Of a stretch of 32,508 nucleotides of DNA, positions 5,766 through 32,508 are shown piece by piece. Each line of letters begins with the position of its first letter. Within the stretch, counting starts at the first letter, position 1. Below the pieces are notes generated by a model. The model saw only the letters and a program-made list of their open reading frames with translations. It was not told the origin of the DNA and did no database searches. Location: NCBI GenBank assembly GCA_019634625.1, contig JAHCBA010000056.1:1-32508 (forward strand), in the 5' to 3' direction. The position numbers and the translations under genes were made by a program. This DNA is from Verrucomicrobiia bacterium. Its GTDB lineage: Bacteria > Verrucomicrobiota > Verrucomicrobiia > Limisphaerales > CAIMTB01.

Positions 5766-6128
5766 TCAAGGGGCCTGGCCGGCGGGTCGTTGAACCCGGA
5801 CGCTGACATGCCGGGCGTGGGGCAGGATGAACTTCTTCACTTCGACCGTGACGGAGGGAACGCCGAATCGTGTGCGGGCGCCCTCGGCGATTTCGACGGC
5901 CAGCGTTTCGATGAGTTTCCATTGGCGGCCTTCGCCGAGCGAGCGGACCCAGAGGCTTACGGCGTGGTAATCGACGGTCCGTTCGAGGTCGTCGGCTGCG
6001 GCCGCGGCGGAGAGGTCGAGGTGCAGTTCCAGGGTGAGGGACAGGCGCTGGGGACGGGCGCGTTCGGTGTCGGGAACGCCGATGTGGAAGAGCACCTCCA
6101 GGTCGTGGATCAGGATGCGGTCGGGCAT
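5766..6128 (-). CDS. folB: Dihydroneopterin aldolase (FolB)
   Basis: The 120-residue protein has the length and motifs of FolB, which converts 7,8-dihydroneopterin to 6-hydroxymethyl-7,8-dihydropterin and glycolaldehyde in folate synthesis. It begins MPDRILIHDLEVLFHIGVPD like the family. Key positions coincide with well-studied FolB numbering: E22 in the TER motif, Y54 in TVDYHAV, E74 in LIETLA, and a lysine in VEVKKF (K98/K99). FolB works as a ring-shaped homo-oligomer in the cytoplasm. Immediately upstream of the ATG, where a ribosome binding site would lie, is a 112-base heptanucleotide array ending five bases before the start codon. The gene converges with the unknown gene ending at 5727, and its product would act in the pathway fed by pabB/pabC. 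Confidence 0.9.
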   Translation of the reverse strand: MPDRILIHDLEVLFHIGVPDTERARPQRLSLTLELHLDLSAAAAADDLERTVDYHAVSLWVRSLGEGRQWKLIETLAVEIAEGARTRFGVPSVTVEVKKFILPHARHVSVRVQRPAGQAP

Positions 6129-6133
6129 GGGAT

Positions 6134-6245
6134 GGCGAATGGCGAATGGCGAATGGCGAATGGCGAATGGCGAATGGCGAATGGCGAATGGCGAGTGGCG
6201 AGTGGCGAGTGGCGAGTGGCGAGTGGCGAGTGGCGAGTGGCGAGT
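6134..6245. repeat. Two-block heptanucleotide tandem array in the folB leader
   Basis: Eight copies of GGCGAAT (6134-6189) are followed without interruption by eight copies of GGCGAGT (6190-6245). The two blocks differ by one A-to-G transition. On the folB sense strand the order is eight ACTCGCC then eight ATTCGCC, ending five bases before the folB ATG. Seven is not a multiple of three and neither unit creates a stop in any frame, which explains the open frames running through it. Copy number could vary by slippage. Confidence 0.95.
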
Positions 6246-6271
6246 GGTGTGCCTGCGGGTTCGAGTACGAG

Positions 6272-11996: not shown

Positions 11997-12163
11997 AAAT
12001 AGAAAGTCAGGCATAGTGTTGTTGACGTCGCACGACTGCCCGATTCCCCCCCCCGAAATCCCATCCGACCGCTGGAGATGACCTGATCGCGGATCTTCAA
12101 CAGAACAACGCCCGGCCTTTTCGACACAACGAGGTCAACAGTACACTGCCCGTCTCATTATCT
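11997..12163. repeat. REP/MITE-like island, copy A
   Basis: The left arm (11997-12027) reads AAATAGAAAGTCAGGC, nine bases, then GTTGACG-type text. The right arm (12133-12163) is its imperfect inverse: GGTCAACAG ... GCCCGTC ... ATTATCT. A second reverse-oriented arm (about 12095-12125) starts CTTCAACAGAACAACGCCCG. Between the arms, GAGATGACCTGATC matches copy C (GAGGTGACCTGATC) and, more loosely, copy B (GAGATGGGCTTGTC). The island is richer in A and T than the flanks. The ends form a 31-base imperfect inverted repeat enclosing about 167 bases. Confidence 0.7.
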
Positions 12164-12265
12164 GGAGAATGCGAGAGCGAGTTGATCTGAAGAGCCCGGT
12201 GCGGGGCAACCGCCCGCCGGGATCTGAGCGGGGGGCGCCGGGTGACCGGCGGCCCTACCGCGACA

Positions 12266-12342
12266 GTGCCGCCCTTCGGGCTGAGTACGAGTCCCCACAC
12301 GGGGTGGTTTGGGCGAGTTCCAGGAACCTGAGATGCGCCCGG
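12266..12342. repeat. Dispersed element headed by a GCCC hairpin, copy 2
   Basis: It begins GTGCCGCCCTTCGGGCTGAG, continues TACGAGTCCCCAC, GGGGTGGTTTGGGCGAGTTC and CAGGAACCTGAGATGCGCCC. The hairpin GCCC-TTC-GGGC and the terminal GAGATGCGCCC are shared with the other copies. It lies about 100 bases to the right of island A, the same order and similar spacing as copy 3 relative to island C. Confidence 0.75.
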
Positions 12343-12422
12343 GGGCCGGGCGTCCTGAAAATATGGATTGCCGCGACGGGATGGGGCGGCTAGTCCGTTG
12401 CGGGAATCAAGGATCCAGACCC

Positions 12423-12887
12423 ATGGAATTCACACCGGCGGGCGAGATCATCGGAGCGATGCACCAGGTGCGGACGGTGAAGATTGCGGGTTTTCCGCAA
12501 CTTCCTGACGGAGAGTTTTCCTTTGTCGATCTGCATTGCACCAATCCGGCATGTGACTGCCGGAAGACGATTATCCAGGTCATCCACAAGGGAAGGGTGG
12601 TCTCGATGATCGATTATGGCTGGGAGACGCCGGAGTATTACCGGAAGTGGATGGGTGACGATGATGCGATGGCGACGGAAATGGCGGGGGCGTCGATTTC
12701 CATGGAGAGCCCGGATTTGGTCCGCCGCGAGGCCATCCTCAAGCTGTTCGAGGCGTTGATGAACGAGCGATGGAAGATGGCGTTCAAGCACCACTATGCC
12801 CTCGTGAAGGAGCGACTGGCGGCGCGTTCCTCGAAGGGTTCGGCCGCGGCGGATGGGCGGGAGGAGGGGGGCGGGGCGGGGCGGTGA
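12423..12887 (+). CDS. Small conserved-looking protein with a CxxxxCxC motif
   Basis: The 154-residue protein has a central DLHCTNPACDCRKTIIQV stretch with C39, C44 and C46, followed by a hydrophobic strand and IDYGWETPEYYRKW (63-76). Similar 'C..p.CDCR' plus 'YGWE..eyY.kW' arrangements occur in uncharacterised proteins of several bacterial phyla, as far as I recall. The cysteines could bind a metal, but no full four-ligand site is obvious unless chains pair up. The ATG at 12423 is preferred because the open frame upstream (from 12309) passes through the hairpin-headed repeat. AAGGA about 11 bases before the ATG is a weak ribosome site. Its end is 40 bases before the epimerase gene. Function unknown. 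Confidence 0.75.
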   Translation: MEFTPAGEIIGAMHQVRTVKIAGFPQLPDGEFSFVDLHCTNPACDCRKTIIQVIHKGRVVSMIDYGWETPEYYRKWMGDDDAMATEMAGASISMESPDLVRREAILKLFEALMNERWKMAFKHHYALVKERLAARSSKGSAAADGREEGGGAGR

Positions 12888-12927
12888 ACGATTGACCCGG
12901 GCCGGGCGGGGGTTCTACAAAGCGGGC

Positions 12928-14085
<1,158 letters not shown>

Positions 14086-14093
14086 AGGCGGAG

Positions 14094-14184
14094 GCTTGAG
14101 GCCTGAAGCCTGAAGCCTGAAGCCTGAAGCCTGAAGCCTGAAACCTGAAACCTGAAACCTGAAACCTGAAGCCTGAGGGCTGAG
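14094..14184. repeat. Two-block heptanucleotide array between galM and mqnA
   Basis: Units in order: GCTTGAG, six GCCTGAA (14101-14142), four ACCTGAA (14143-14170), GCCTGAG and GGCTGAG. As in the array at 6134-6245, the unit is seven bases and two blocks differ by a single transition. The array fills nearly the whole gap between the galM stop (14085) and the mqnA stop (14191), two convergent genes. Confidence 0.95.
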
Positions 14185-14190
14185 GGGGGG

Positions 14191-15036
14191 TTAGGGGACG
14201 TAGTGGGGGGGGAAGACGGGGTGGGGTTGGTGGCGGCGGAGGTAGTCTGCGAAGCGGGCGAGGCCGGCTTTTTCGCGGGCGCCGAGGTGGTGCCGGGTGT
14301 GCCGGGTGAGGTAACGGCGGCGAAAGGCGGCGTCGCGTTCGGGGGCGGATTCGATGATGAGATCGAGTTCGCGTTGTCCGCGGAGCGCTGCGGATTGGAG
14401 TTCTGCCCGGAGGGAGGTGGTGTCGGCATCGCGGCGCAGAACCCAGACGGCGTACACGAAGGGGAGGCCGGTCAATTGCTGCCAGGCCAGGCCGAGGTCC
14501 CAGACGGGCAGATCCGGGTGGAGGTGGCGAAAGGCAATGGCCGGATCGCCGATGAGGAGGGCGGCGTCGTGGTCCGGCGCGCGGTCCGGTTCGGGAAGAG
14601 GCCGCAGGGCGGGGCGCAGACCACGTTCCGCGAGGAGTACGCGGAGGAGGTTGACGCTGGTGAGGGAGGCGGTGTGGCAGAAGACGGTTTGAATGCAGTC
14701 GAGGGGTTGCCGGTGGGCGAGGAAGACGCTGTGCACTTCGCCGTCGGAGGCGACGCAGGGGCCGTCGAGGATGTCGTAGCCGGGATGGAGAAGGGCCTCG
14801 GTCACGCTGAGCAGGGCGGCGTCGAGTTCGCCCAGGCGGAGGGAGACGGCGAGGTCGGACGGGGGTGCGAGACGGAGGCGGTGTTCGATGCCGCGGACGA
14901 GGGGTGCGGCGTTGAGGTAGGGGACGGATCCGGCGCGCAGCAAGGTGCCCGGATCTGGGGCGAGGGCAGGGAGCGTCCCGGAATCGGGCGGTGTCGGGAA
15001 GAGAGTGGACGGCAACATGCGAACCGGTGGGGCCAT
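14191..15036 (-). CDS. mqnA: Menaquinone biosynthesis protein MqnA (chorismate dehydratase) family
   Basis: The 281-residue protein has the MqnA/MqnD fold, related to periplasmic binding proteins. Signatures are AGSVPYLNAAPLVRGI near the start (35-50) and VWDLGLAWQQLTGLPFVYAVWV (first half 178-190). MqnA dehydrates chorismate to 3-[(1-carboxyvinyl)oxy]benzoate, the first step of the futalosine pathway to menaquinone. MqnD shares the fold, but the N-terminal SVPYLNAAPL and LTGLPFVYA blocks favour MqnA. ATGs at 15036 and 15018 both leave an unusual N-terminal tail of about 30 residues, rich in Pro. A TTG nearer the conserved block, at LLRAGS, would give normal length. The RAYT element ends 39 bases upstream of 15036, so it may have displaced the original promoter. 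No other mqn gene is in the window. Confidence 0.85.
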   Translation of the reverse strand: MAPPVRMLPSTLFPTPPDSGTLPALAPDPGTLLRAGSVPYLNAAPLVRGIEHRLRLAPPSDLAVSLRLGELDAALLSVTEALLHPGYDILDGPCVASDGEVHSVFLAHRQPLDCIQTVFCHTASLTSVNLLRVLLAERGLRPALRPLPEPDRAPDHDAALLIGDPAIAFRHLHPDLPVWDLGLAWQQLTGLPFVYAVWVLRRDADTTSLRAELQSAALRGQRELDLIIESAPERDAAFRRRYLTRHTRHHLGAREKAGLARFADYLRRHQPHPVFPPHYVP

Positions 15037-15075
15037 GGTGCCAGCGGACGGGCGTTGAGCCAGTCCGGCATCGTT

Positions 15076-15100
15076 GGGGTCAGATCTCTGATTTTGACAA
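15076..15100 (+). repeat. Left terminal inverted repeat of the RAYT element
   Basis: Twenty-five bases beginning GGGGTCAGATCTCTG, pairing with 16163-16187 (24 of 25 positions). The internal GTCA...TGAC makes it a weak palindrome. Confidence 0.9.
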
Positions 15101-15111
15101 ATCTCCGGAGG

Positions 15112-15121
15112 TCGGAGGAGG
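15112..15121 (+). promoter_or_regulatory. Strong Shine-Dalgarno site of the RAYT gene
   Basis: TCGGAGGAGG/GGAGGAGGG lies about 10 bases upstream of the ATG at 15131. Almost no other gene in the window has a comparable site, so it both supports this start and sets the element apart. Confidence 0.6.
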
Positions 15122-15130
15122 GTTGCGGAC

Positions 15131-16183
15131 ATGGCGAGGCCTTTGCGATGCGAGTTGGAGGGAGGGCGCCAGCATGTGATGGCGCGGGGGAACGAGCGGA
15201 GGCCCATCTTCGTGGAAGACCGGGACCGGCAGCACTTCATGGAGTTACTGGCGGAGCTTCCGGAGCGATTCGGGGTGGAGGTGCATGCCTGGGTGCTGAT
15301 GGACAATCATTATCATCTGCTGTTGAGGACACCGGAGGCGAATCTGAGCCGGGCGTGCCAGTGGTTGAACGTGGCGTACAGCGTGTGGTTCAACCGGCGG
15401 CATGAACGGATCGGGCACCTTTTTCAGGGGCGGTTCAAATCTGTGCTGGTGGACGACGGGAGCTGGATGGAGGTGGCCCGGTATGTGCATTTGAATCCGG
15501 TGCGGGTGGCTGGATTGGGACTGGGCAAACCGGACCGTGCGCGACAGCGGACGGTGGGTTCGCCCGACCCCGGGGGAGACTTGGTGGCGCGACGCCTGGA
15601 GGGATTGCGGAGCTTCCGGTGGAGTTCGTACCGGGCGTATGCGGGATTGGCGGAGGCGCCCCCGTGGCTGACGACCGGCGATGTGCTGGGAGTCGGGCGG
15701 GGCGGTCTGACCGTGACCGAGGCCAGACGGGAGTTGCGAAAGTACCATGAGGCGCCCCTGCGGGGAGGCCGCTTGGAGACGGTGTGGGACCGGGTGGTGG
15801 GGGGGGCGCTGCTAGGGTCGGAGGAGTTCATTGTCCGGATGAAGGAGCGGCTCAAGCAGGTGCCGGGGGAGGTTTCCGGGGCTGGCGGGTTTCGGGATCG
15901 GATTGGGTGGGAGCGGATCGTTGAGGCGGTGGAGGCGGAGCACGGCGAGCGGTGGGAGGCATTTCGGGATCGACACGGGGACTGGGCCCGGGATGTGGCG
16001 CTGTACCTGGGGCGTCGGAGAGGGCGGATGACCTTGCGGGAGCTGGGCGAGCGAGTGGGCGGACTTGGCGTGGCGGCGACCGGGCAGGCGGTGAGTCGGG
16101 TGACCAGGAGCCGGGAACGGGGTGGGGATCTGGCTCGACGCATCGAGGCGATCGAACGGCAATTGTCAAAATCAGAGATGTGA
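15131..16183 (+). CDS. REP-associated tyrosine transposase (Y1, IS200/IS605-like fold)
   Basis: The 350-residue protein is a Y1 HUH nuclease of the COG1943 type. It opens ARPLRCELEGGRQHVMARGN, the standard RAYT N-terminus. The HUH motif is H60-Y61-H62 in MDNHYHLLL, and the catalytic tyrosine is Y118 in EVARYVHLNPVRVAG. HLFQGRFKSVLVD (97-109) is also conserved. Residues beyond about 200 form a long C-terminal extension ending in a helix-turn-helix-like segment (TLRELGERVGGLGVAATGQA). It would cut and join single-stranded DNA at its own ends or at related repeats. A strong GGAGGAGGG lies about 10 bases before the ATG, unlike neighbouring genes, which lack such sites. The last codons and the TGA lie inside the right terminal repeat. 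All motifs are intact, so it may be active. Confidence 0.93.
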   Translation: MARPLRCELEGGRQHVMARGNERRPIFVEDRDRQHFMELLAELPERFGVEVHAWVLMDNHYHLLLRTPEANLSRACQWLNVAYSVWFNRRHERIGHLFQGRFKSVLVDDGSWMEVARYVHLNPVRVAGLGLGKPDRARQRTVGSPDPGGDLVARRLEGLRSFRWSSYRAYAGLAEAPPWLTTGDVLGVGRGGLTVTEARRELRKYHEAPLRGGRLETVWDRVVGGALLGSEEFIVRMKERLKQVPGEVSGAGGFRDRIGWERIVEAVEAEHGERWEAFRDRHGDWARDVALYLGRRRGRMTLRELGERVGGLGVAATGQAVSRVTRSRERGGDLARRIEAIERQLSKSEM

Positions 16184-16187
16184 CCCC
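16163..16187 (-). repeat. Right terminal inverted repeat of the RAYT element
   Basis: Reverse complement of the left repeat with one mismatch. It encodes the last residues of the transposase and its TGA stop (16181-16183). A GTG at 16180 overlaps this stop and is in frame with the SGNH gene. Confidence 0.9.
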
Positions 16188-16197
16188 GAGACGATTC

Positions 16198-17274
16198 ATG
16201 GTGCTGGCCCTGGGGGGCGGGGTTCTGGTGGCGGAATTCGTGCTGGGGTATGCGCTGTGGATGCGACAGTCCCGGCAGAGTGCCATTCATCACACGTTGG
16301 GTGAGGTGAGGTTGGTGCTGGAGGAGTTCGCCGACCGGCCGCGGCCGGTCGCGGTGCGCGTGTTGTACGAGCCGGAGTCGATGTATCGTCCTGACCCGCT
16401 TTTGGGGTATTCGAGCCGGCCCGGGGTTTACCAGGTGACACTGACGAACACAGCGGGCGGGGAGGCGCGCACTTTTCGGGTGACGATCGATGAGGCCGGT
16501 CGGCGGGTGACGTCAGCGGCGCCGGGGTTGTTGGAGGGACGACCGGAGATCTGGGTGATGGGGAACTCGTTTGTTTATGGTTGGGGTAACGACGACGAGA
16601 CGACCTTGGGGGCGTTCCTGCAGCGTTATTTTCCGGACCGACGGGTGGTGAACTATGCGGAGAGCGGGTACGGCAATGTGCATGGGTATTTGCAGATGCT
16701 CCGGGATCTGCCGATGGCGGACCCGGCGCCGCAGACGGTGGTCGTAGGGTACGCCGACTACTACAACGAGCGGAATGTGGCCGCGGCGAGCCGGTTGCAG
16801 ACCTTTCGTCGCGGGCTGGACAGGACCGGCGGGGGCGAATGGCAGTCGGATCCGGCCGAGTTCACGCATCCGCGGGCTCGGTTGGTGGAGGGACGGTTGG
16901 AGATCGACCGGGTGCCCTTGTTTCCGGAGGCCTCCGGCCGTTCCCAGCGCGGGAGGGATCCGTCGCTGGACGAGCAGTACGAGGTGACCTGCCGGCTGTT
17001 GGAGGAGATGGCGCAGCTGGGTTCGGCGCATGGGGTGCGTCTGGTGTTGGGATTTCTTCAGGGCGGGGACGACGACCCGGCGGTGACGTGTGCGGAGGCG
17101 CATGGCTACCTGGTGGCGGATCTGCGTCCAGACTACAACCGGCACGAGTGGGACGATTTCCAGCCGCTGGACGGGCATCCGGGGCCGGTGGCCCAGAGCA
17201 TCTACGCGTGGAAACTGTTCCGGGCACTGATGGAGGGTGAGGAGGACGGGGTCGGATCGCTGCCTGCACAGTGA
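16198..17274 (+). CDS. SGNH/GDSL-hydrolase-like protein with N-terminal membrane anchor
   Basis: The 358-residue protein starts with a hydrophobic segment (about 1-21), a signal anchor. The rest carries the four SGNH blocks in order: S124 in VMGNSFVYGWG, a glycine in NYAESGYGNVHGYLQ (152-166), N190 in VVGYADYYNERN, and a D-x-H pair in LDGHPGPVAQS (D325, H327). Such enzymes are esterases or acyl-transferring/removing enzymes; substrates of exported members are often acetylated sugars or lipids, but none can be named here. An in-frame GTG at 16180 would add MTPRRF, giving a basic stretch before the anchor, and lies inside the RAYT right end overlapping its stop. The original start may have been lost to the insertion. 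The class call is good; the substrate is unknown. Confidence 0.8.
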   Translation: MVLALGGGVLVAEFVLGYALWMRQSRQSAIHHTLGEVRLVLEEFADRPRPVAVRVLYEPESMYRPDPLLGYSSRPGVYQVTLTNTAGGEARTFRVTIDEAGRRVTSAAPGLLEGRPEIWVMGNSFVYGWGNDDETTLGAFLQRYFPDRRVVNYAESGYGNVHGYLQMLRDLPMADPAPQTVVVGYADYYNERNVAAASRLQTFRRGLDRTGGGEWQSDPAEFTHPRARLVEGRLEIDRVPLFPEASGRSQRGRDPSLDEQYEVTCRLLEEMAQLGSAHGVRLVLGFLQGGDDDPAVTCAEAHGYLVADLRPDYNRHEWDDFQPLDGHPGPVAQSIYAWKLFRALMEGEEDGVGSLPAQ

Positions 17275-17307
17275 CCAGTGACCTTCCGAAGCACGACTTC
17301 GAAGCGT

Positions 17308-17527
17308 AAATAAAAAGTCAGGCGATTTGATGTTGACGCCGAATCATCCGGTCAGAAGTTCGAGAAGGTATTAAAAGTCAGGCGTCTTTCGGTTGACGCA
17401 GTGATCCGATCGGGGGCCCAAAGAAATCTCATTCGGCTGCGGGGAGATGGGCTTGTCGCCGGTAAGTAAAACGAGCCGGGCCTATTCTTTGACGGTCAGT
17501 CAATAGTACAATGCCTGCCAAATAATC
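17308..17527. repeat. REP/MITE-like island, copy B
   Basis: Two forward 31-base arms lie exactly 60 bases apart (17308-17338 and 17368-17398), both with AAAAGTCAGGCG and GTTGACG. A reverse arm lies at 17497-17527 (CAGTCAATAG ... ATGCCTGCC ... AATAATC). Between them GGAGATGGGCTTGTCGCCGG and AGTAAAACGAGCCGGGCC align with the interior of copy A. The island occupies most of the 293-base gap between the SGNH gene and tctA, two convergent genes. No terminator is obvious outside it. Confidence 0.7.
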
Positions 17528-17567
17528 GGCATGGGTGCTTCCTTACGGGGCGTTGCCTGGATGGAGG

Positions 17568-19067
17568 TCAGGCGCGGGGGATGAGAGTATCCGGGGATGG
17601 ACCTGGGGCTTTGCGAAGGAGGCGGGCGATCCTGGGGCCGACGAGGGAGAGGACGAGGAGGAGCCAGAGGACGAGGCAGATGGGGCGGGTGACAAAGGGC
17701 AGGAAGGCGCCCTGGGACTTGATGAGGCCGGTTCGGAGATTCTCTTCGACCATGGGGCCCAGGATGAGACCAAGGATGAGGGGGGCGACGGGGATGCGTC
17801 GGGATTCGAGGAAATAGCCGACCCAGCCGGCGGCGACCATGATCCCGACATCGAAGAGGCTGTTGCGAAGGGCGAAGGCGCCGACGACGGAGAAGACGAC
17901 GACGGCGGTCATGATGAGGTTGCGGGGGAGGCGGAGGATGCCGCCGAAGGTCTTGAAGGCGAGGTAGCCGCAGGGGAGGAGGAGGAGTTGGGTGATGAGG
18001 GCGATGCCGAAGATGGCCTCCACCTGGGCGGCGCTTTGTTCGAAGATGAGGGGGCCGGGCTTGAGGTTGTACACGAGCACGGCGCCAATGACGATGGCGG
18101 TGACGGTGTCACCGGGGATGCCGAAGACGAGGGCGGGGATCCAGGCGCCGGCGACGGCGGCGTTGTGGGCGCCGGCAGGCGCAACGACGCCGCGTTCGTC
18201 GCCCTTTCCGAGCCGTTCCGGATTTCGGGCGGATTTCTTTTCGATGCCGTAGGCGGCCCAGGCGGCGATGTCGGCGCCGGCGCCGGGCAGGGCTCCGGTG
18301 AAGGTGCCGACGATGGAGGCTCGGACGAGAGTCAGCTTGTGGCGGAGGAGGGTGAGGAGGCTATGGAGGGGGCGGATGTGGTCGTCTGGGCGGACGGAGG
18401 GGGCGGACATGGACTCGCCCCGGGCGACATTGCGAAGGACTTCGGAGAGGCCGAAGAGGCCGATCATGACGGGGATGAAGCCGACGCCGCTCATGAGGTC
18501 GGACTGGCCGAAGGTGAAGCGGGGGGTGCCGCTGACGAGGTCGATGCCAACGGTGGAGAGGAGCATGCCGAGGGCGGCGGCGAGGAGGCCTTTGATGGTG
18601 GAGCCGCCGCTGACGGCGGCGCTGAGGCTAAGCCCGAGAATGCCCAGCCAGAAGTATTCGAAATTGCTGAAGCGCAGCGCGAACTTGGCGAGTTGCGGGG
18701 CGAGGAACATGAGGATCAGCACACCGACGAGGCCGCCGAGGCAGGAGCTGAAGAGGGCGAGGGAGAGGGCGTGGCCGGCGCGGCCTTGTCGGGCCATGGC
18801 GTGGCCGTCGAGTGTGGTGGCGGCGGAGGCTGGGGTGCCGGGGATGCGGAGGTAGATGGCGGGGATGTCGCCGGCGAAGATGGCGGCGAAGCTGACCCCG
18901 ATGATCATGGCGAGGCTGGCGGTGGGGTTGTCGAGTTCGAAGCTGATGGGGACGATGAGGGCGACGGCCATGGTAGCCGTGAGGCCGGGGGTGGCGCCCA
19001 CAAACAGGCCGAAGAGCATGGCCAGAATGAGCGGCCCGAGGATCTGCGGTTGGAGCAGTTCCGTCAT
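17568..19067 (-). CDS. tctA: Tripartite tricarboxylate transporter large permease (TctA)
   Basis: The 499-residue inner-membrane protein has 11-12 hydrophobic segments and the TctA signature near its start, FGLFVGATPGLTATMAVALI (19-38). A second copy of the glycine-rich pattern, TFTGALPGAGADIAAWAAYG, lies in the C-terminal half, matching the family's internal duplication. It would form the transport channel for a tricarboxylate or other organic acid together with TctB, fed by the binding protein TctC. Length is normal (about 500). It is the last of four genes transcribed leftwards, 37 bases after tctB. Confidence 0.93.
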   Translation of the reverse strand: MTELLQPQILGPLILAMLFGLFVGATPGLTATMAVALIVPISFELDNPTASLAMIIGVSFAAIFAGDIPAIYLRIPGTPASAATTLDGHAMARQGRAGHALSLALFSSCLGGLVGVLILMFLAPQLAKFALRFSNFEYFWLGILGLSLSAAVSGGSTIKGLLAAALGMLLSTVGIDLVSGTPRFTFGQSDLMSGVGFIPVMIGLFGLSEVLRNVARGESMSAPSVRPDDHIRPLHSLLTLLRHKLTLVRASIVGTFTGALPGAGADIAAWAAYGIEKKSARNPERLGKGDERGVVAPAGAHNAAVAGAWIPALVFGIPGDTVTAIVIGAVLVYNLKPGPLIFEQSAAQVEAIFGIALITQLLLLPCGYLAFKTFGGILRLPRNLIMTAVVVFSVVGAFALRNSLFDVGIMVAAGWVGYFLESRRIPVAPLILGLILGPMVEENLRTGLIKSQGAFLPFVTRPICLVLWLLLVLSLVGPRIARLLRKAPGPSPDTLIPRA

Positions 19068-19104
19068 GGCCGGTTCGATCCGGGTTTGGGAGGTGGGAGG
19101 CGGG

Positions 19105-19626
19105 TTACCATGGGAATCCGAGCAGACCGGTGGGGAGTTGAACGCGGAAGAGGGTGGCGAAGAGGAGATGGATCACGGCAACGAGGGTGATGGCGGTGCC
19201 GACGGCCCAGCGCCAGGTGGCACCGAGGCCTTTCATGAGGCCCAGGACCAGCAGAATGGTGCTCGGGATGAAGCCGAGCCAGGCGATGGCGGGGACATAG
19301 AGGATGGCGGCCAGTCCGACGGAAAGGGTGGCACGGGGCGGAAAGAGGGATCGGGGATTGGGGAGGAACGGGTTGGGTTCGCCACGGGCTGCGGCGGCGC
19401 GCTGGGCTTCGCGAAGTTCGATGAGTTCCCGGAGGCCGCCGGCCGCAAGGAAGAGTCCCAGGAGGAGCGGAAAGGCGCGGGGTCCAGGGTCGGAAGTGTC
19501 GCCGAGGGGCCGATAGGGGATACGGGCGGCGAGGAAGGCGGCCATGGCGCCAAAGGCCACCAAGGCGGTGCCGAGGGCGAGGCTGGGACGGTCTGGAGGG
19601 GGCGGGGAATCGGGGTCGGGGATCAT
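19105..19626 (-). CDS. tctB: Tripartite tricarboxylate transporter small permease (TctB)
   Basis: The 173-residue protein shows four hydrophobic segments (about 18-36, 50-66, 102-132 and 137-160), the family layout. The loop after the first helix contains PLGDTSDPGPRAFPLLLGLF, matching the conserved 'lG..dPGPg.fP' region of TctB. It is the small membrane partner of TctA. The ATG at 19626 overlaps the tctC stop as ATGA, so translation is coupled; the upstream open frame to 19665 would overlap further and is not needed. Confidence 0.9.
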   Translation of the reverse strand: MIPDPDSPPPPDRPSLALGTALVAFGAMAAFLAARIPYRPLGDTSDPGPRAFPLLLGLFLAAGGLRELIELREAQRAAAARGEPNPFLPNPRSLFPPRATLSVGLAAILYVPAIAWLGFIPSTILLVLGLMKGLGATWRWAVGTAITLVAVIHLLFATLFRVQLPTGLLGFPW

Positions 19627-20633
19627 GGTCGTGCGTAGCCGGCAGCCTCGATGACGGTCCGCCACTGGGCGTCCTGGGCCTCCAGGAAGGCGGTGAAGTC
19701 GTGGGGCCCGCGGCGGGCGGTGGCGAATCCGTTGAGGCGCATGAACTCGGCGAATTCGGGGGATTCCGTGATGGTCTGGAGGTGGGACTGGAGGAGCGCG
19801 ACGATGTCGGGGTGAACGCCACGGGGCAGGACGATGCCGCGCCAGCCGATCGCCTCCCAGTCGATGCCGGCTTCGAGGACCGTGGGGAGATCGGGGAATT
19901 CGGCGAGGCGTTCGCGACTCATGACGGCGAGGACGCGGAGCTGGCCGGCCTCGATCTGGGAGGCGGCTTCGGGGACGCTGCAGCAGACGAGATCGACGTG
20001 ACCGCCGAGGAGTTCGACGAGGGAGGGAGCTGAGCCCTGGGTGGGAACCCAGACGACAGAATCCACGGTCAATCCAGCAGCCATGAGGAAACCGGCGCGG
20101 GCGAGGTCCCAGGCTCCCCCGGTGGAGGTGCCGGACATGCTGAGCTGGCGGGGGTTCTGGCGGATGTGATCGATCAATTGGGTGACCGAGGTCCAGGGGG
20201 CATCCTGGCGGACGATAAGGGCGGCGGCGTCGCCGTTGAGCTGAATGAGCGGGGTGAAGTCGCGGTGGGTCAACTCCGAGATGCCCATCCAGTGCATGGT
20301 ATTGAGCTCGAAGGTGGCCATGGTGAGGGTGTAGCCATCGGGAGCGGCGTCGGCCCCCGCTTGATGGCCGGCGGCACCGCTGCCGCCGATGCGGTTCACG
20401 ACCACGACGGGCCGGCCGAGGCGGCGCTGGAGTTGTTCGGCGACAAATCGGGCGATACGGTCGGTGCCGCCGCCGGCGGCCCAGGGGCAGATCAGAGTAA
20501 CGGCCCGGCGAGGGTAGCCTTCGGCCGGGCTGACATTGGGATCGACAGCCTCGCCGGGACGGCAGCCTGGGAGGAGTGCAAGGAGGCCAGCTGCCAGCCA
20601 GGCGCGGGGGTTGAGGAGGGAGCGAAGGATCAT
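19623..20633 (-). CDS. tctC: Tripartite tricarboxylate transporter substrate-binding lipoprotein (TctC/Bug family)
   Basis: The 336-residue protein has a lipoprotein signal (MILRSLLNPRAWLAAGLLAL then LPGC, lipidated C24). The mature part carries Bug-family motifs: YPRRAVTLICPWAAGGGTDRIARFVA, here 'ICPWAAGGGTD' as the loop that holds a carboxylate, VVVVNRIGGSGAAGH, and PDGYTLTMAT. It captures an organic acid outside the cytoplasm and delivers it to TctAB; the ligand cannot be told from sequence. The ATG at 20633 is chosen because it begins the signal peptide; the frame upstream (to 20846) overlaps the propeller gene. It follows the propeller gene by 58 bases. Confidence 0.92.
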   Translation of the reverse strand: MILRSLLNPRAWLAAGLLALLPGCRPGEAVDPNVSPAEGYPRRAVTLICPWAAGGGTDRIARFVAEQLQRRLGRPVVVVNRIGGSGAAGHQAGADAAPDGYTLTMATFELNTMHWMGISELTHRDFTPLIQLNGDAAALIVRQDAPWTSVTQLIDHIRQNPRQLSMSGTSTGGAWDLARAGFLMAAGLTVDSVVWVPTQGSAPSLVELLGGHVDLVCCSVPEAASQIEAGQLRVLAVMSRERLAEFPDLPTVLEAGIDWEAIGWRGIVLPRGVHPDIVALLQSHLQTITESPEFAEFMRLNGFATARRGPHDFTAFLEAQDAQWRTVIEAAGYARP

Positions 20634-20691
20634 TGGGGTTGTGGCGGGAGGGGGATGGAGGACGCTGGATTCCTGGCGCATGGGTGGGCGG

Positions 20692-21882
20692 CTATCGTCC
20701 GGCGCGGAGGGATGAGGGCATTCCGGGGGTGGGGATGCGGATGCCGGTGTCCCGGAGGCGGTGGCCGCGCACCCGGTAGATCCAGAGTTCCCGGTCGGGA
20801 TGGCATTGCACGACGAGGTGACGTCCGTCCGGGCTGAAGGCGACACCTTCGGGGATGCGGCCGATGAGGACTTCCTGGACGACGGTAAAGCGGTTGCCTT
20901 GGCGGCGGAGGAGGACGAGGGAGCCGTTGGCGGTGCGGAGGGGATCGGCGGGGCCGAGGTTGGAACCGTTCATGAGGACCGCGGCGACGAGGTGGCCGCG
21001 GGGATGAATCTCGATGGATTCGGGAACGGCGCCGAGGGCGACGTAGTCGTGGGTGCGGATGGGGTCCACGGTGAGGTCGATGACGGACATGGCGTCGGGA
21101 TCGAGACCGTTGCCATGGCCTTGGCCGGCGGTGAGGGCGAGGCGGCCATCGGGGGTGATGACACAGCGATAGGGCTGGCCATAGACGGAGACCTTCCGGT
21201 CGGTGGGGCGGAGGGTGTCGCCATCGAGTAGGAGTACGGCGAGGTAACCGCCCTTTTGGACGCTGGCGAGGACAAGGCGGCCATTGGGATGGACGGCGAC
21301 GTCCGAGACGCTGTCCTCGGGTGCGGCCACCGGGACAGTCTGGAGGTGGGAGAGGTGCGGACCATCGAGCCGCAGAAGGGAGACGGTGCCATCGGCGCGG
21401 TTGGCGACGAGGACACGGGAGCCATCGGGTGTGATGGAGAGCCCGCTGGGCTGGCTGCCGGCGCGGGCTTCGCCGACGACGCGGGGAGGCTGGAGGGTGA
21501 GGTCCACGACACGGAGGGTGGACTCGGGGATCCAGCGGGAGGGATCGAGGGGATCCAGGCGGAGGGAGTCGGCGACGATGGCGTGGCGGTTGTCGGGGGT
21601 GATGGCGAGGTTGGAAGGGGGGCCGATAACGGAATTGGGAATGTCGTCGATATGCTGAACTCGGGGCGGGAAGACGGAGAAGTCGAGCAGGGTGAGGGAA
21701 TCGGGATTGGCGCCTGGGACGGTGCGGGCGGCACCGGAATCGAGGTCGATCTTGTTCTCGTTGCCCGAGATCATCAGTTGCGCTGTCGCCGATTGGGGCA
21801 GCGCGGGGAGGAGGCCGGCGAGGATGAGACGGGCGAGCGCCAGGCGGCGGGCTGTTCGCGGGATTGGGAGGGGGCCGAGCAT
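20692..21882 (-). CDS. Exported beta-propeller protein (YncE / lactonase-like repeats)
   Basis: The 396-residue protein has a signal peptide ending near TATAQ-type sequence (about residue 35, QSATAQ). At least six blade repeats follow, each with a 'P(D/N)GR..vV' turn: LAITPDNRHAIVAD, LSITPDGSRVLVAN, VAVHPNGRLVLASV, CVITPDGRLALTAG, IEIHPRGHLVAAV and VAFSPDGRHLVVQ. This is the YVTN/YncE or 6-phosphogluconolactonase-like seven-bladed fold, acting in the periplasm or at the cell surface. Ligand or activity is unknown. It is the first gene of the unit leading into tctCBA. The frame is open upstream to 22236, but that part crosses the transposase remnant; the ATG at 21882 gives a proper signal peptide. 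Confidence 0.85.
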   Translation of the reverse strand: MLGPLPIPRTARRLALARLILAGLLPALPQSATAQLMISGNENKIDLDSGAARTVPGANPDSLTLLDFSVFPPRVQHIDDIPNSVIGPPSNLAITPDNRHAIVADSLRLDPLDPSRWIPESTLRVVDLTLQPPRVVGEARAGSQPSGLSITPDGSRVLVANRADGTVSLLRLDGPHLSHLQTVPVAAPEDSVSDVAVHPNGRLVLASVQKGGYLAVLLLDGDTLRPTDRKVSVYGQPYRCVITPDGRLALTAGQGHGNGLDPDAMSVIDLTVDPIRTHDYVALGAVPESIEIHPRGHLVAAVLMNGSNLGPADPLRTANGSLVLLRRQGNRFTVVQEVLIGRIPEGVAFSPDGRHLVVQCHPDRELWIYRVRGHRLRDTGIRIPTPGMPSSLRAGR

Positions 21883-22039
21883 GGGCTGGTGCCTGGAACC
21901 TTTGGATCGGATCGGATTGGGCTTTATGACCACGGATGGAGGCGGTTCCGGGAACGGCACGGAGGCTAGGAGGGAGTTGGCGGTGGAGGCAACCGGGTTT
22001 TGGGGAGGTCTTGGGGACCGTGAATCCTTGGCGAGCTTC

Positions 22040-22215
22040 GGGGAAATGCTTTTCCAGATGCCCCCTTCGGGTCCGCAACCCTGTTCGCACTTTCGAGCAC
22101 CCCATTGGCGATGGGCCGGATCCGCAACTGCAGGATCGGTCTGAGCGGTGCTCCGCCCTCTCCTGTCTCCCGGGGCACGTGTCCTGTCCTGATGGTCTTC
22201 GGCCCCCCGCCGCGT
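22040..22215 (-). pseudogene. Decayed C-terminal fragment of a RAYT transposase
   Basis: The minus-strand frame reads GPKTIR, then GGAPLRPILQLRIRPIANGV and LES. The intact-looking C-terminus at the right edge reads GPEAIR, then GGQLPLGQILRLRIRHMTDG and VFLGS. The order and spacing of identical residues point to a common origin. Beyond 'GVLES' the match is lost, so a frameshift or degeneration is likely, and an extra segment of about ten residues separates the two blocks. No N-terminal part with an HUH motif is present. Confidence 0.5.
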
Positions 22216-22265
22216 CCGATTGCTGCTGGGGCCCACCCACCATTCAATAGAATAGAGAATAGAAG

Positions 22266-22456
22266 AAATAAATGGTCAGGCTCTTAGTTGTTCACGCCAT
22301 ACCGGATACCCCAAGAAGACCAACGTGGCTGCCAGAGGTGACCTGATCATGATTCGTCAACAAAATCAAGAAAGGGTCGGTTTGGTCAGTCAGCAGTAAA
22401 ATGCCCGACTTATTGTTAGATCTTGGGTCAATAATTATCTGCCAGGCCTATTGCAG
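22266..22456. repeat. REP/MITE-like island, copy C
   Basis: A forward arm (22266-22296: AAATAAATGGTCAGGC ... GTTCACG) is followed by three reverse-oriented arms: about 22355-22380 (CGTCAACAAAATC), 22387-22417 (CAGTCAGCAG ... ATGCCCGACTTATT) and about 22426-22456 (GGTCAATAATTATCTGCC). Inside, GAGGTGACCTGATC matches copy A. The island begins about 50 bases from the decayed transposase fragment and is markedly A/T-richer than the flanks. Confidence 0.7.
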
Positions 22457-32213: not shown

Positions 32214-32508
32214 TCACCCCACTGCATCGACGCGGAGATCGCGCAACACGGTAACTCCTGGAATCGGGGCGCCGCGAATGATGCGGGCGCCGCTCTTGCG
32301 CCGCTTGCCGAACTTGTCCCGGTGCCGTTCCCACATCTGGTTCACGAACTCCTTCGATCCCAGGAACACCCCGTCAGTCATGTGTCGGATCCGCAGCCGC
32401 AGGATCTGGCCCAGCGGCAGTTGACCACCCCGCGCCAGTTCCGCCCGGATCGCCTCCGGACCCAGCACCCGCTTGTCGCTCCGCCCCGACGTCCCGCCGA
32501 TCACGTAT
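32214..32508 (-). CDS. REP-associated transposase, C-terminal part (cut by window edge)
   Basis: The visible 97 codons run in from the right edge and end at a TGA (32214-32216). The sequence has VIGGTSGRSDKRVLGPEAIR, ELARGGQLPLGQILRLRIRH, MTDGVFLGSKEFVNQMWERH, RDKFGKRRKSGAR, and LRDLRVDAVG at the end. The blocks 'R.R..TDG..LGS..FV', 'R..FG.KRK.GAR' and 'LRDLRV' are, in my recollection, the standard C-terminus of a group of RAYT transposases common in Verrucomicrobia. The open frame has no stop before the edge, so the GTG at 32504 is unlikely to be the true start. The catalytic domain is outside the window. Confidence 0.7.
   Translation of the reverse strand, partial: YVIGGTSGRSDKRVLGPEAIRAELARGGQLPLGQILRLRIRHMTDGVFLGSKEFVNQMWERHRDKFGKRRKSGARIIRGAPIPGVTVLRDLRVDAVG

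What the first reader, a model, noticed from the sequence alone, without database searches (positions are those of the whole stretch)
11997..22456. Family of 31-base GTCAGGC...GTTGACG units in three head-to-head islands
Islands A (11997-12163), B (17308-17527) and C (22266-22456) each contain forward arms on the left and reverse arms on the right. Forward arms at 11997, 17308, 17368 and 22266 are all exactly 31 bases in the same register. Reverse arms at 12133, 17497 and 22387 are also 31 bases. The interiors align too (GAGATGACCTGATC in A, GAGGTGACCTGATC in C, GAGATGGGCTTGTC in B). No protein is encoded, and the islands are A/T-richer than the rest. The layout matches REP/BIME or MITE elements, and the genome also carries RAYT transposases, which act on such repeats. 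A described family with this exact unit is not known to me.
Basis: seen in the sequence. Interest (0 to 1): 0.72.

Follow-up and report, generated by a model that had tools for sequence, protein, structure and literature searches.

The report
Amplified transposase-linked repeat arms in Verrucomicrobiota
The three islands belong to a large family (hundreds of arms) of short intergenic repeats in one Verrucomicrobiota genome, and the repeat unit is the same two-part sequence that sits in front of a roughly 30-copy transposase gene, so the islands are probably small passenger elements spread by that transposase, although no movement has been shown.

Summary
The arm AAATAATAA-GTCAGGC-N8-GTTGACG occurs hundreds of times. 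A held-out profile finds 65 hits in 593 kb against 0-1 in controls, which extrapolates to about 700 genome-wide. 64 of 65 arms are intergenic; typical islands are tandem arms, a ~65-bp core and inverted arms. The four congeners held have none.

That one (15131-16183) is a TIRYT with its own GGGGTCAG inverted repeats. The partner is a different, ~30-copy RAYT with the hallmarks of TnpAY1 subclass 2.3 (a fragment lies at 32217-32507). 23 of 28 copies carry the arm upstream, mostly in the same orientation. Homologs in other families of the order carry the same arm (CAGG-N10-TTGAC). There TTGAC looks like the -35 box of the RAYT promoter. Only one other genome of 320 scanned (G124) is as enriched, and it too has dozens of this RAYT's copies.

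The arm shows no hairpin covariation, so it is not a REP. Islands favour divergent intergenic regions, unlike REPs. Best reading: MITE/REPIN-like non-autonomous elements built from this RAYT's 5' arm. Movement is inferred, not shown.

The parts
11997..12027 (+). Island A, forward arm (A/T box plus GTCAGGC-N8-GTTGACG)
   Evidence: 44 bits
12028..12094 (+). Island A core, with GAGATGACCTGATC at 12075-12088; arm plus core is 80% identical over about 110 bp to C49:18297-18406
12095..12116 (-).
   Evidence: 16 bits
12133..12163 (-). Island A, outer reverse arm
17308..17338 (+). Island B, forward arm 1
   Evidence: 43 bits
17368..17398 (+). Island B, forward arm 2 (60 bp from arm 1)
17399..17496 (+). 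Island B core (GAGATGGGCTTGTC) with a doubtful reverse arm near 17460 (12 bits)
17497..17527 (-). Island B, reverse arm
22266..22296 (+). Island C, forward arm
22297..22386 (+). Island C core (GAGGTGACCTGATC)
22387..22417 (-). Island C, reverse arm
22424..22453 (-).
32217..32507 (-). 3' part (97 aa) of one copy of the partner RAYT (subclass 2.3-like, roughly 30 copies in the genome); the contig breaks inside it
15131..16183 (+). Another RAYT (Y1_Tnp, HYH, DnaA-like C-terminus, subclass 2.1/TIRYT type); not the partner of the arms
15076..15100 (+). Left inverted repeat of that RAYT, GGGGTCAGATCTCTGATTTTGACAA (fits the TIRtron consensus GGGGWSAS)
   Evidence: PMC3733652
16163..16187 (-). Right inverted repeat of that RAYT

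Best explanation
The arm is the conserved 5' (left-end) element of a multi-copy RAYT (REP-associated tyrosine transposase) lineage that has the hallmarks of TnpAY1 subclass 2.3. In front of the RAYT its right half, TTGAC, also looks like the -35 box of the RAYT promoter. In this species, and separately in G124, the arm has been copied into hundreds of intergenic sites, in this species mostly as compact units of tandem arms, core and inverted tandem arms. These units carry no gene. They are most likely non-autonomous, MITE/REPIN-like elements spread in trans by the RAYT, with local gain and loss of tandem arms at about 36-bp spacing. Shown: the copy number, the layout, the link to the RAYT, the parallel amplification, and sequence homology between islands that starts at the A/T box. 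Inferred: that the RAYT recognises the arm and moves the units.
For: Amplified and real. Species-specific: 0 profile matches in four congeners against at least 160 in this genome, which is a capped lower bound. RAYT link: about 30 copies at 90-97% identity. An arm of at least 15 bits lies 60-420 bp upstream of 23 of 28 Y1 domains, 31 of 35 arms in the same orientation; about 1 of 28 is expected from genome density. The same arm with the same CAGG-N10-TTGAC spacing precedes RAYT homologs in other families of the order, which themselves mostly lack the amplification. Parallel case: of 320 genomes of the order only this one (133 sites against 15 control) and G124 (123 against 12) stand out. G124 has dozens of copies of this RAYT, and its readable upstream regions carry the arm. 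Promoter: TANNNT after TTGACN falls at offsets 15-18 in 18 of 21 occurrences across the three RAYT sets. Unit copying: island-to-island alignments run through arm and core and mostly start 6-9 bp outside the outer arm.
Against: No empty site, excision or movement was seen; no second strain is held. RAYT genes have no scored arm downstream of the gene, so the RAYT unit is not itself flanked by inverted arms. Island arms and RAYT-linked arms are recognisably different subfamilies (GTTGACG against a TTTTAAA spacer), so the islands are not fresh copies of today's RAYT ends. Known RAYTs cut hairpins in single-stranded DNA, and this arm is not a hairpin. Homology between RAYT copies stops at the start and stop codons, so the limits of the mobile unit are undefined. 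The enrichment of islands in divergent intergenic regions is not explained by this model.
Confidence: 0.62

Rival explanations
1. The arms are operator sites of a host DNA-binding regulator or nucleoid protein, arranged in arrays at divergent promoters; the RAYT merely uses the same site to control its own promoter.
For: The arm is bipartite with a degenerate spacer and no palindrome. Islands favour divergent intergenic regions: 14 of 20 in the unbiased sample and 51 of 87 overall, against 17-18% of intervals. In RAYT upstream regions the site overlaps a -35 box.
Against: Whole units of arm plus core are homologous between loci, with a shared outer boundary, as in copied elements. Presence is restricted to one species of its genus. 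Arm orientation does not follow the direction of the neighbouring gene (52 of 88, p = 0.11).
Confidence: 0.15
2. The islands came first, and RAYT copies insert next to existing arms, using them as landing sites (as ISPpu9 does with REPs, PMC8450116).
For: RAYT copies are about 91% identical in DNA only across the ORF, while upstream sequences differ.
Against: RAYT-linked arms form their own subfamily, and RAYT homologs in genomes without amplified arms still carry a single arm at a similar place. The arm therefore travels with the gene.
Confidence: 0.1
3. Classical REP/BIME family (palindromic REPs mobilised by a TnpAREP).
For: High copy number, intergenic, inverted pairs, a RAYT gene nearby.
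Against: No covariation or conserved palindrome, no GTAG tag, wrong intergenic preference (PMC3733652, PMC8266576).
Confidence: 0.05
4. MITE family of some other transposon with TIR-type ends, with the RAYT link a by-product.
For: Inverted ends, no coding capacity, about 130-bp unit with core.
Against: The arm is tied to one RAYT lineage in several families of the order. No other transposase family was searched for next to arms.
Confidence: 0.08

Closest known systems
TIRtrons / TIRYT repeats (Di Nocera et al. 2013, PMC3733652; TnpAY1 subclass 2.1 in PMC6006769)
   Same: RAYT-like gene with non-REP repeats at its side; repeats dispersed as singles, dimers or clusters. The arm core GNCAG is reminiscent of the WSAS half of their GGGGWSAS consensus.
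   Different: No GGGG; no inverted copy found downstream of the gene; different RAYT type (HuH-Y distance 111 instead of about 57); hundreds of arms in tandem-core-inverted islands; arm carries a promoter -35 box.
REPINs and their RAYTs (Bertels and Rainey 2011, PMC3116915)
   Same: Non-autonomous intergenic units of two inverted arms with a spacer, linked to a RAYT gene in the same genome.
   Different: Arms are not palindromic REPs; several tandem arms per side; the RAYT is present in roughly 30 copies, whereas RAYTs in PMC3116915 are single-copy.
TnpAY1 subclass 2.3 (PMC6006769)
   Same: Partner protein has length 326, HuH-Y distance 111 and a Y---NP motif, and is multi-copy; the paper gives median 325, median 110, Y---NP, and the only class-2 subclass without low copy number.
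   Different: The paper found no REP-like structures next to subclass 2.3 genes; here a non-palindromic repeat family is linked to them, and the copies are 90-97% identical.
Bacterial MITEs such as Correia/NEMIS, ERIC, RUP
   Same: Short intergenic elements with inverted ends and no gene.
   Different: No target-site duplication was looked for; the linked enzyme is a HUH RAYT rather than a DDE transposase.

Membership tests
REP / BIME | 20-40 nt imperfect palindrome (stem-loop) | tested here: not met
   Position 1 varies freely while its partner stays A; mutual information of the putative pairs is at background; folding z about -0.5 for arms and -0.8 for units, against mononucleotide shuffles
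REP / BIME | GTAG (or GTGG) tetranucleotide 5' of the stem | tested here: not met
   Positions -4 to -1 are A/T-rich; G at -4 in only 23% of island arms
REP / BIME | High-copy, intergenic, inverted pairs | tested here: met
REP / BIME | Located mainly between convergent or unidirectional genes | tested here: not met
   51 of 87 islands in divergent intervals; REP preference from PMC3733652
REPIN | Two inverted arms with spacer, copied as a unit, RAYT gene in the genome | tested here: met
   Arm-core homology between islands; 33 head-to-head pairs 78-121 bp apart; RAYT link
REPIN | Forms a hairpin in single-stranded DNA | tested here: not met
   25 units: median z -0.4, only a few below -3
REPIN | Mobilised by the RAYT | not testable with these tools
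   No second strain or reads; no biochemistry
TIRtron / TIRYT repeats | Inverted copies of the repeat on both sides of the transposase gene | tested here: not met
   No scored arm downstream of the RAYT copies of this genome; none in a 400-bp scan downstream in G124
TIRtron / TIRYT repeats | GGGGWSAS motif in the repeat | tested here: not met
   Only the WSAS-like GNCAG part is present; the window's other RAYT does carry GGGGTCAG
MITE | Terminal inverted repeats, no coding capacity | tested here: met
   terminal arms are imperfect and variable in number
MITE | Target-site duplication or empty site | not tested
   No paralogous or allelic empty site available; flanks were not examined for duplications
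TnpAY1 subclass 2.3 (partner protein) | Length about 325, HuH-Y distance about 110, Y---NP motif | tested here: met
   326 aa, 111, YIDLNP; values from PMC6006769
TnpAY1 subclass 2.3 (partner protein) | Placement in the subclass 2.3 clade by phylogeny | not tested
   No reference members at hand; subclass-like homologs at 25-31% identity in Pseudoalteromonas, Shewanella, Vibrio plasmids, HuH-Y distance 101-112

The most novel reading that the evidence does not exclude
Subclass 2.3 RAYTs, for which no associated repeats were found in the survey read here, recognise a non-palindromic bipartite arm instead of a hairpin. The same sequence serves as their promoter and as the end of a non-autonomous element, and when this RAYT multiplies in a genome its arm multiplies with it.
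Probability: 0.3. Interest if true: 0.72.

Novelty: new variant of a known kind. Interest (0 to 1): 0.52.

Why it matters
Subclass 2.3 is described as the one class-2 TnpAY1 (RAYT) group without low copy number, and no repeats had been identified next to it (PMC6006769). A repeat family tied to it, amplified in parallel in two bacterial families, makes the question of what these RAYTs act on testable, and shows that RAYT-linked repeats need not be palindromes. The preference for divergent promoter regions also makes an effect on gene expression worth testing.

Tried and rejected
Promoter or terminator only: island arms show no -10 box at the right distance, and arm orientation does not follow gene direction. 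Hairpin/REP: rejected by covariation and folding. Rfam: no match in the window. Partner = RAYT in the window: rejected, it has its own GGGGTCAG repeats and belongs to another type. Conserved positions of the islands near glnD in relatives: the nearest relatives (66-71% GlnD identity) have no arms and no shared gene order there. Exact motif in 97 relatives: one single match in one other genome. The arm-like match inside the RAYT ORF was not used as evidence, because other genera lack it. My first gene caller mis-called strands and was replaced. One strand folding (over the length limit) and one script (time limit) failed and were replaced.

Full report
Observation. Two further clear arms lie in islands A and C. 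The islands are 46-54% G+C in a 66.8% G+C window. Rfam has nothing in the window.

Size of the family. The window lies on contig 56 of a 6.74-Mb, 88-contig Verrucomicrobiota genome (nearest glnD relatives are Verrucomicrobiales and other Verrucomicrobiota MAGs). GTCAGGC-N8-GTTGACG with up to one mismatch occurs 98 times against 9 for the reversed pattern. I fetched 1.45 Mb in stretches. The whole of C1 and 280 kb of C2 (593 kb) were fetched without regard to hits. A profile trained on the other contigs finds 65 hits of at least 16 bits there, against 1 in reversed sequence and 0 in Markov shuffles; shuffles of intergenic sequence alone give about 0.1. That extrapolates to about 700 arms. Among intergenic GNCAGGC sites, TTGAC lies at exactly +16 in 88 of 346, against 1.8 at other offsets, so the two blocks have a fixed spacing while the spacer is degenerate.

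Layout. 64 of 65 arms in the unbiased sample are intergenic, although intergenic sequence is 15% of it. Same-direction arms are spaced mostly 34-40 bp. Head-to-head pairs are mostly 83-104 bp apart. The core between them is asymmetric and recognisable in many islands, in either orientation. Island A and C49:18297 are 80% identical through arm and core, and island alignments mostly begin 6-9 bp outside the outermost arm, at the A/T box. This points to copied units. 51 of 87 islands lie between divergent genes (154 of 863 intervals, 34% of intergenic bases); 8 lie between convergent genes. In the window, A and C are divergent and B is convergent. The divergent preference is strong but has no explanation here. 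Arm direction does not follow gene direction (52 of 88, p = 0.11). Part of the 87-island set was fetched around RAYTs and arms; the unbiased subset gives 14 of 20 divergent.

Not a hairpin. Putative stem pairs GTCAG/TTGAC show no covariation; position 1 is T, C, A or G while its partner stays A. Units and single arms fold little better than mononucleotide shuffles.

The transposase link. The genome holds 30 Y1_Tnp matches. Two, including the one in the window, are of the type with GGGGTCA- repeats. The rest form one lineage of 326 aa, about 91% identical in DNA and 90-97% in protein, with roughly 30 copies, because 44 matches include halves at contig ends. One such half is at window 32217-32507. 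23 of 28 scored copies have an arm of at least 15 bits upstream, 31 of 35 arms in the same orientation; by eye most of the remainder have a variant with a spacer one base longer or shorter. About 1 of 28 would be expected from the arm density. DNA homology between copies stops near the start codon and about 20 bases after the stop codon. No scored arm lies downstream of these genes.

Other genomes. Four congeners have no profile match and only 39-44% identical RAYTs in 1-3 copies. The profile search scores at most 150 candidates per genome, so the own count of 160 is a lower bound. In 320 genomes of the order, 22 encode RAYT homologs at E up to 1e-85. Of the upstream regions read, most carry AAATAAAGTGACAGGTTC-N-TTGAC or a close variant, some 30-55 bases before the start codon. 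GNCAGG-N10-TTGAC is strongly enriched only in this genome (133 against 15) and in G124 of another family (123 against 12), with slight excess in G285 and G286. G124 has 145 RAYT matches including fragments; I estimate at least several tens of copies. All 15 readable upstream regions used there hold a TTGAC block in an arm-like context by eye; the strict left block matches in only one of 16 by regular expression, so this statement rests partly on visual alignment. In the three sets, TANNNT after TTGACN falls at offsets 15-18 in 18 of 21 occurrences (own 5 of 6, f7 6 of 8, G124 7 of 7), the spacing of a sigma-70 promoter.

What the partner is. Length 326, HuH-Y distance 111 and YIDLNP match TnpAY1 subclass 2.3 of PMC6006769 (median 325, median 110, Y---NP). 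NCBIfam gives REP-associated tyrosine transposase below its cut-off. [quoted passage not shown] A phylogenetic placement was not done. The window RAYT (HYH, distance 57, weak DnaA-like C-terminus, GGGGTCAG repeats) fits subclass 2.1/TIRYT (PMC3733652). Five gammaproteobacterial plasmid copies of the 2.3-like type were inspected; three show GGACAGGCAC or GGACAGACAC-like tandem copies upstream, without the TTGAC block at the same spacing. This is a lead only.

Mechanism. The best-supported reading is that the arm is the 5' element of this RAYT lineage, used there as part of its promoter, and that units built of arms and core are non-autonomous elements spread by the RAYT in trans. Recognition and movement are inferred. 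The strongest points against are the absence of a downstream arm at RAYT genes, the different subfamily of the island arms, and the lack of the hairpin that characterised RAYTs require (PMC8266576).

Scope of the novelty claim. Literature was searched only in the open library; the main RAYT classification paper (Bertels et al. 2017) is not held. I found no description of this repeat or of repeats tied to subclass 2.3, but absence there is not proof.

Noticed in passing
   Followed up: partly
partner RAYT ORF, about 616 bp after the Y1 domain start (e.g. C27 copy, codons 220-227): All 15 copies examined hold an inverted arm-like sequence GCGTCAGCAGAATATCGCCTGGC (or a one-base variant) inside the coding region, with a run of A/T-ending codons (TCA GCA GAA TAT) in a gene with 15% A/T third positions. 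Homologs in other genera lack it. Meaning unknown.
   Followed up: partly
many contig ends of G000 (C1, C23, C27, C46, C49, C52, C56, C61, C64, C65, C66, C72, C81-C83 and others): The assembly breaks inside the partner RAYT gene, as expected for a recent multi-copy element; the window's right end is one such break.
   Followed up: no
upstream regions of RAYTs in congeners (L161, L164): Congeners carry a different tandem repeat, GGGGACAGG..., in front of their more distant RAYTs, which suggests turnover of the arm within the genus.
   Followed up: no
window 6118-6264 and 14069-14187: Short tandem repeats of a 7-base unit (ATGGCGA / GTGGCGA; TGAAGCC / TGAAACC).
   Followed up: no
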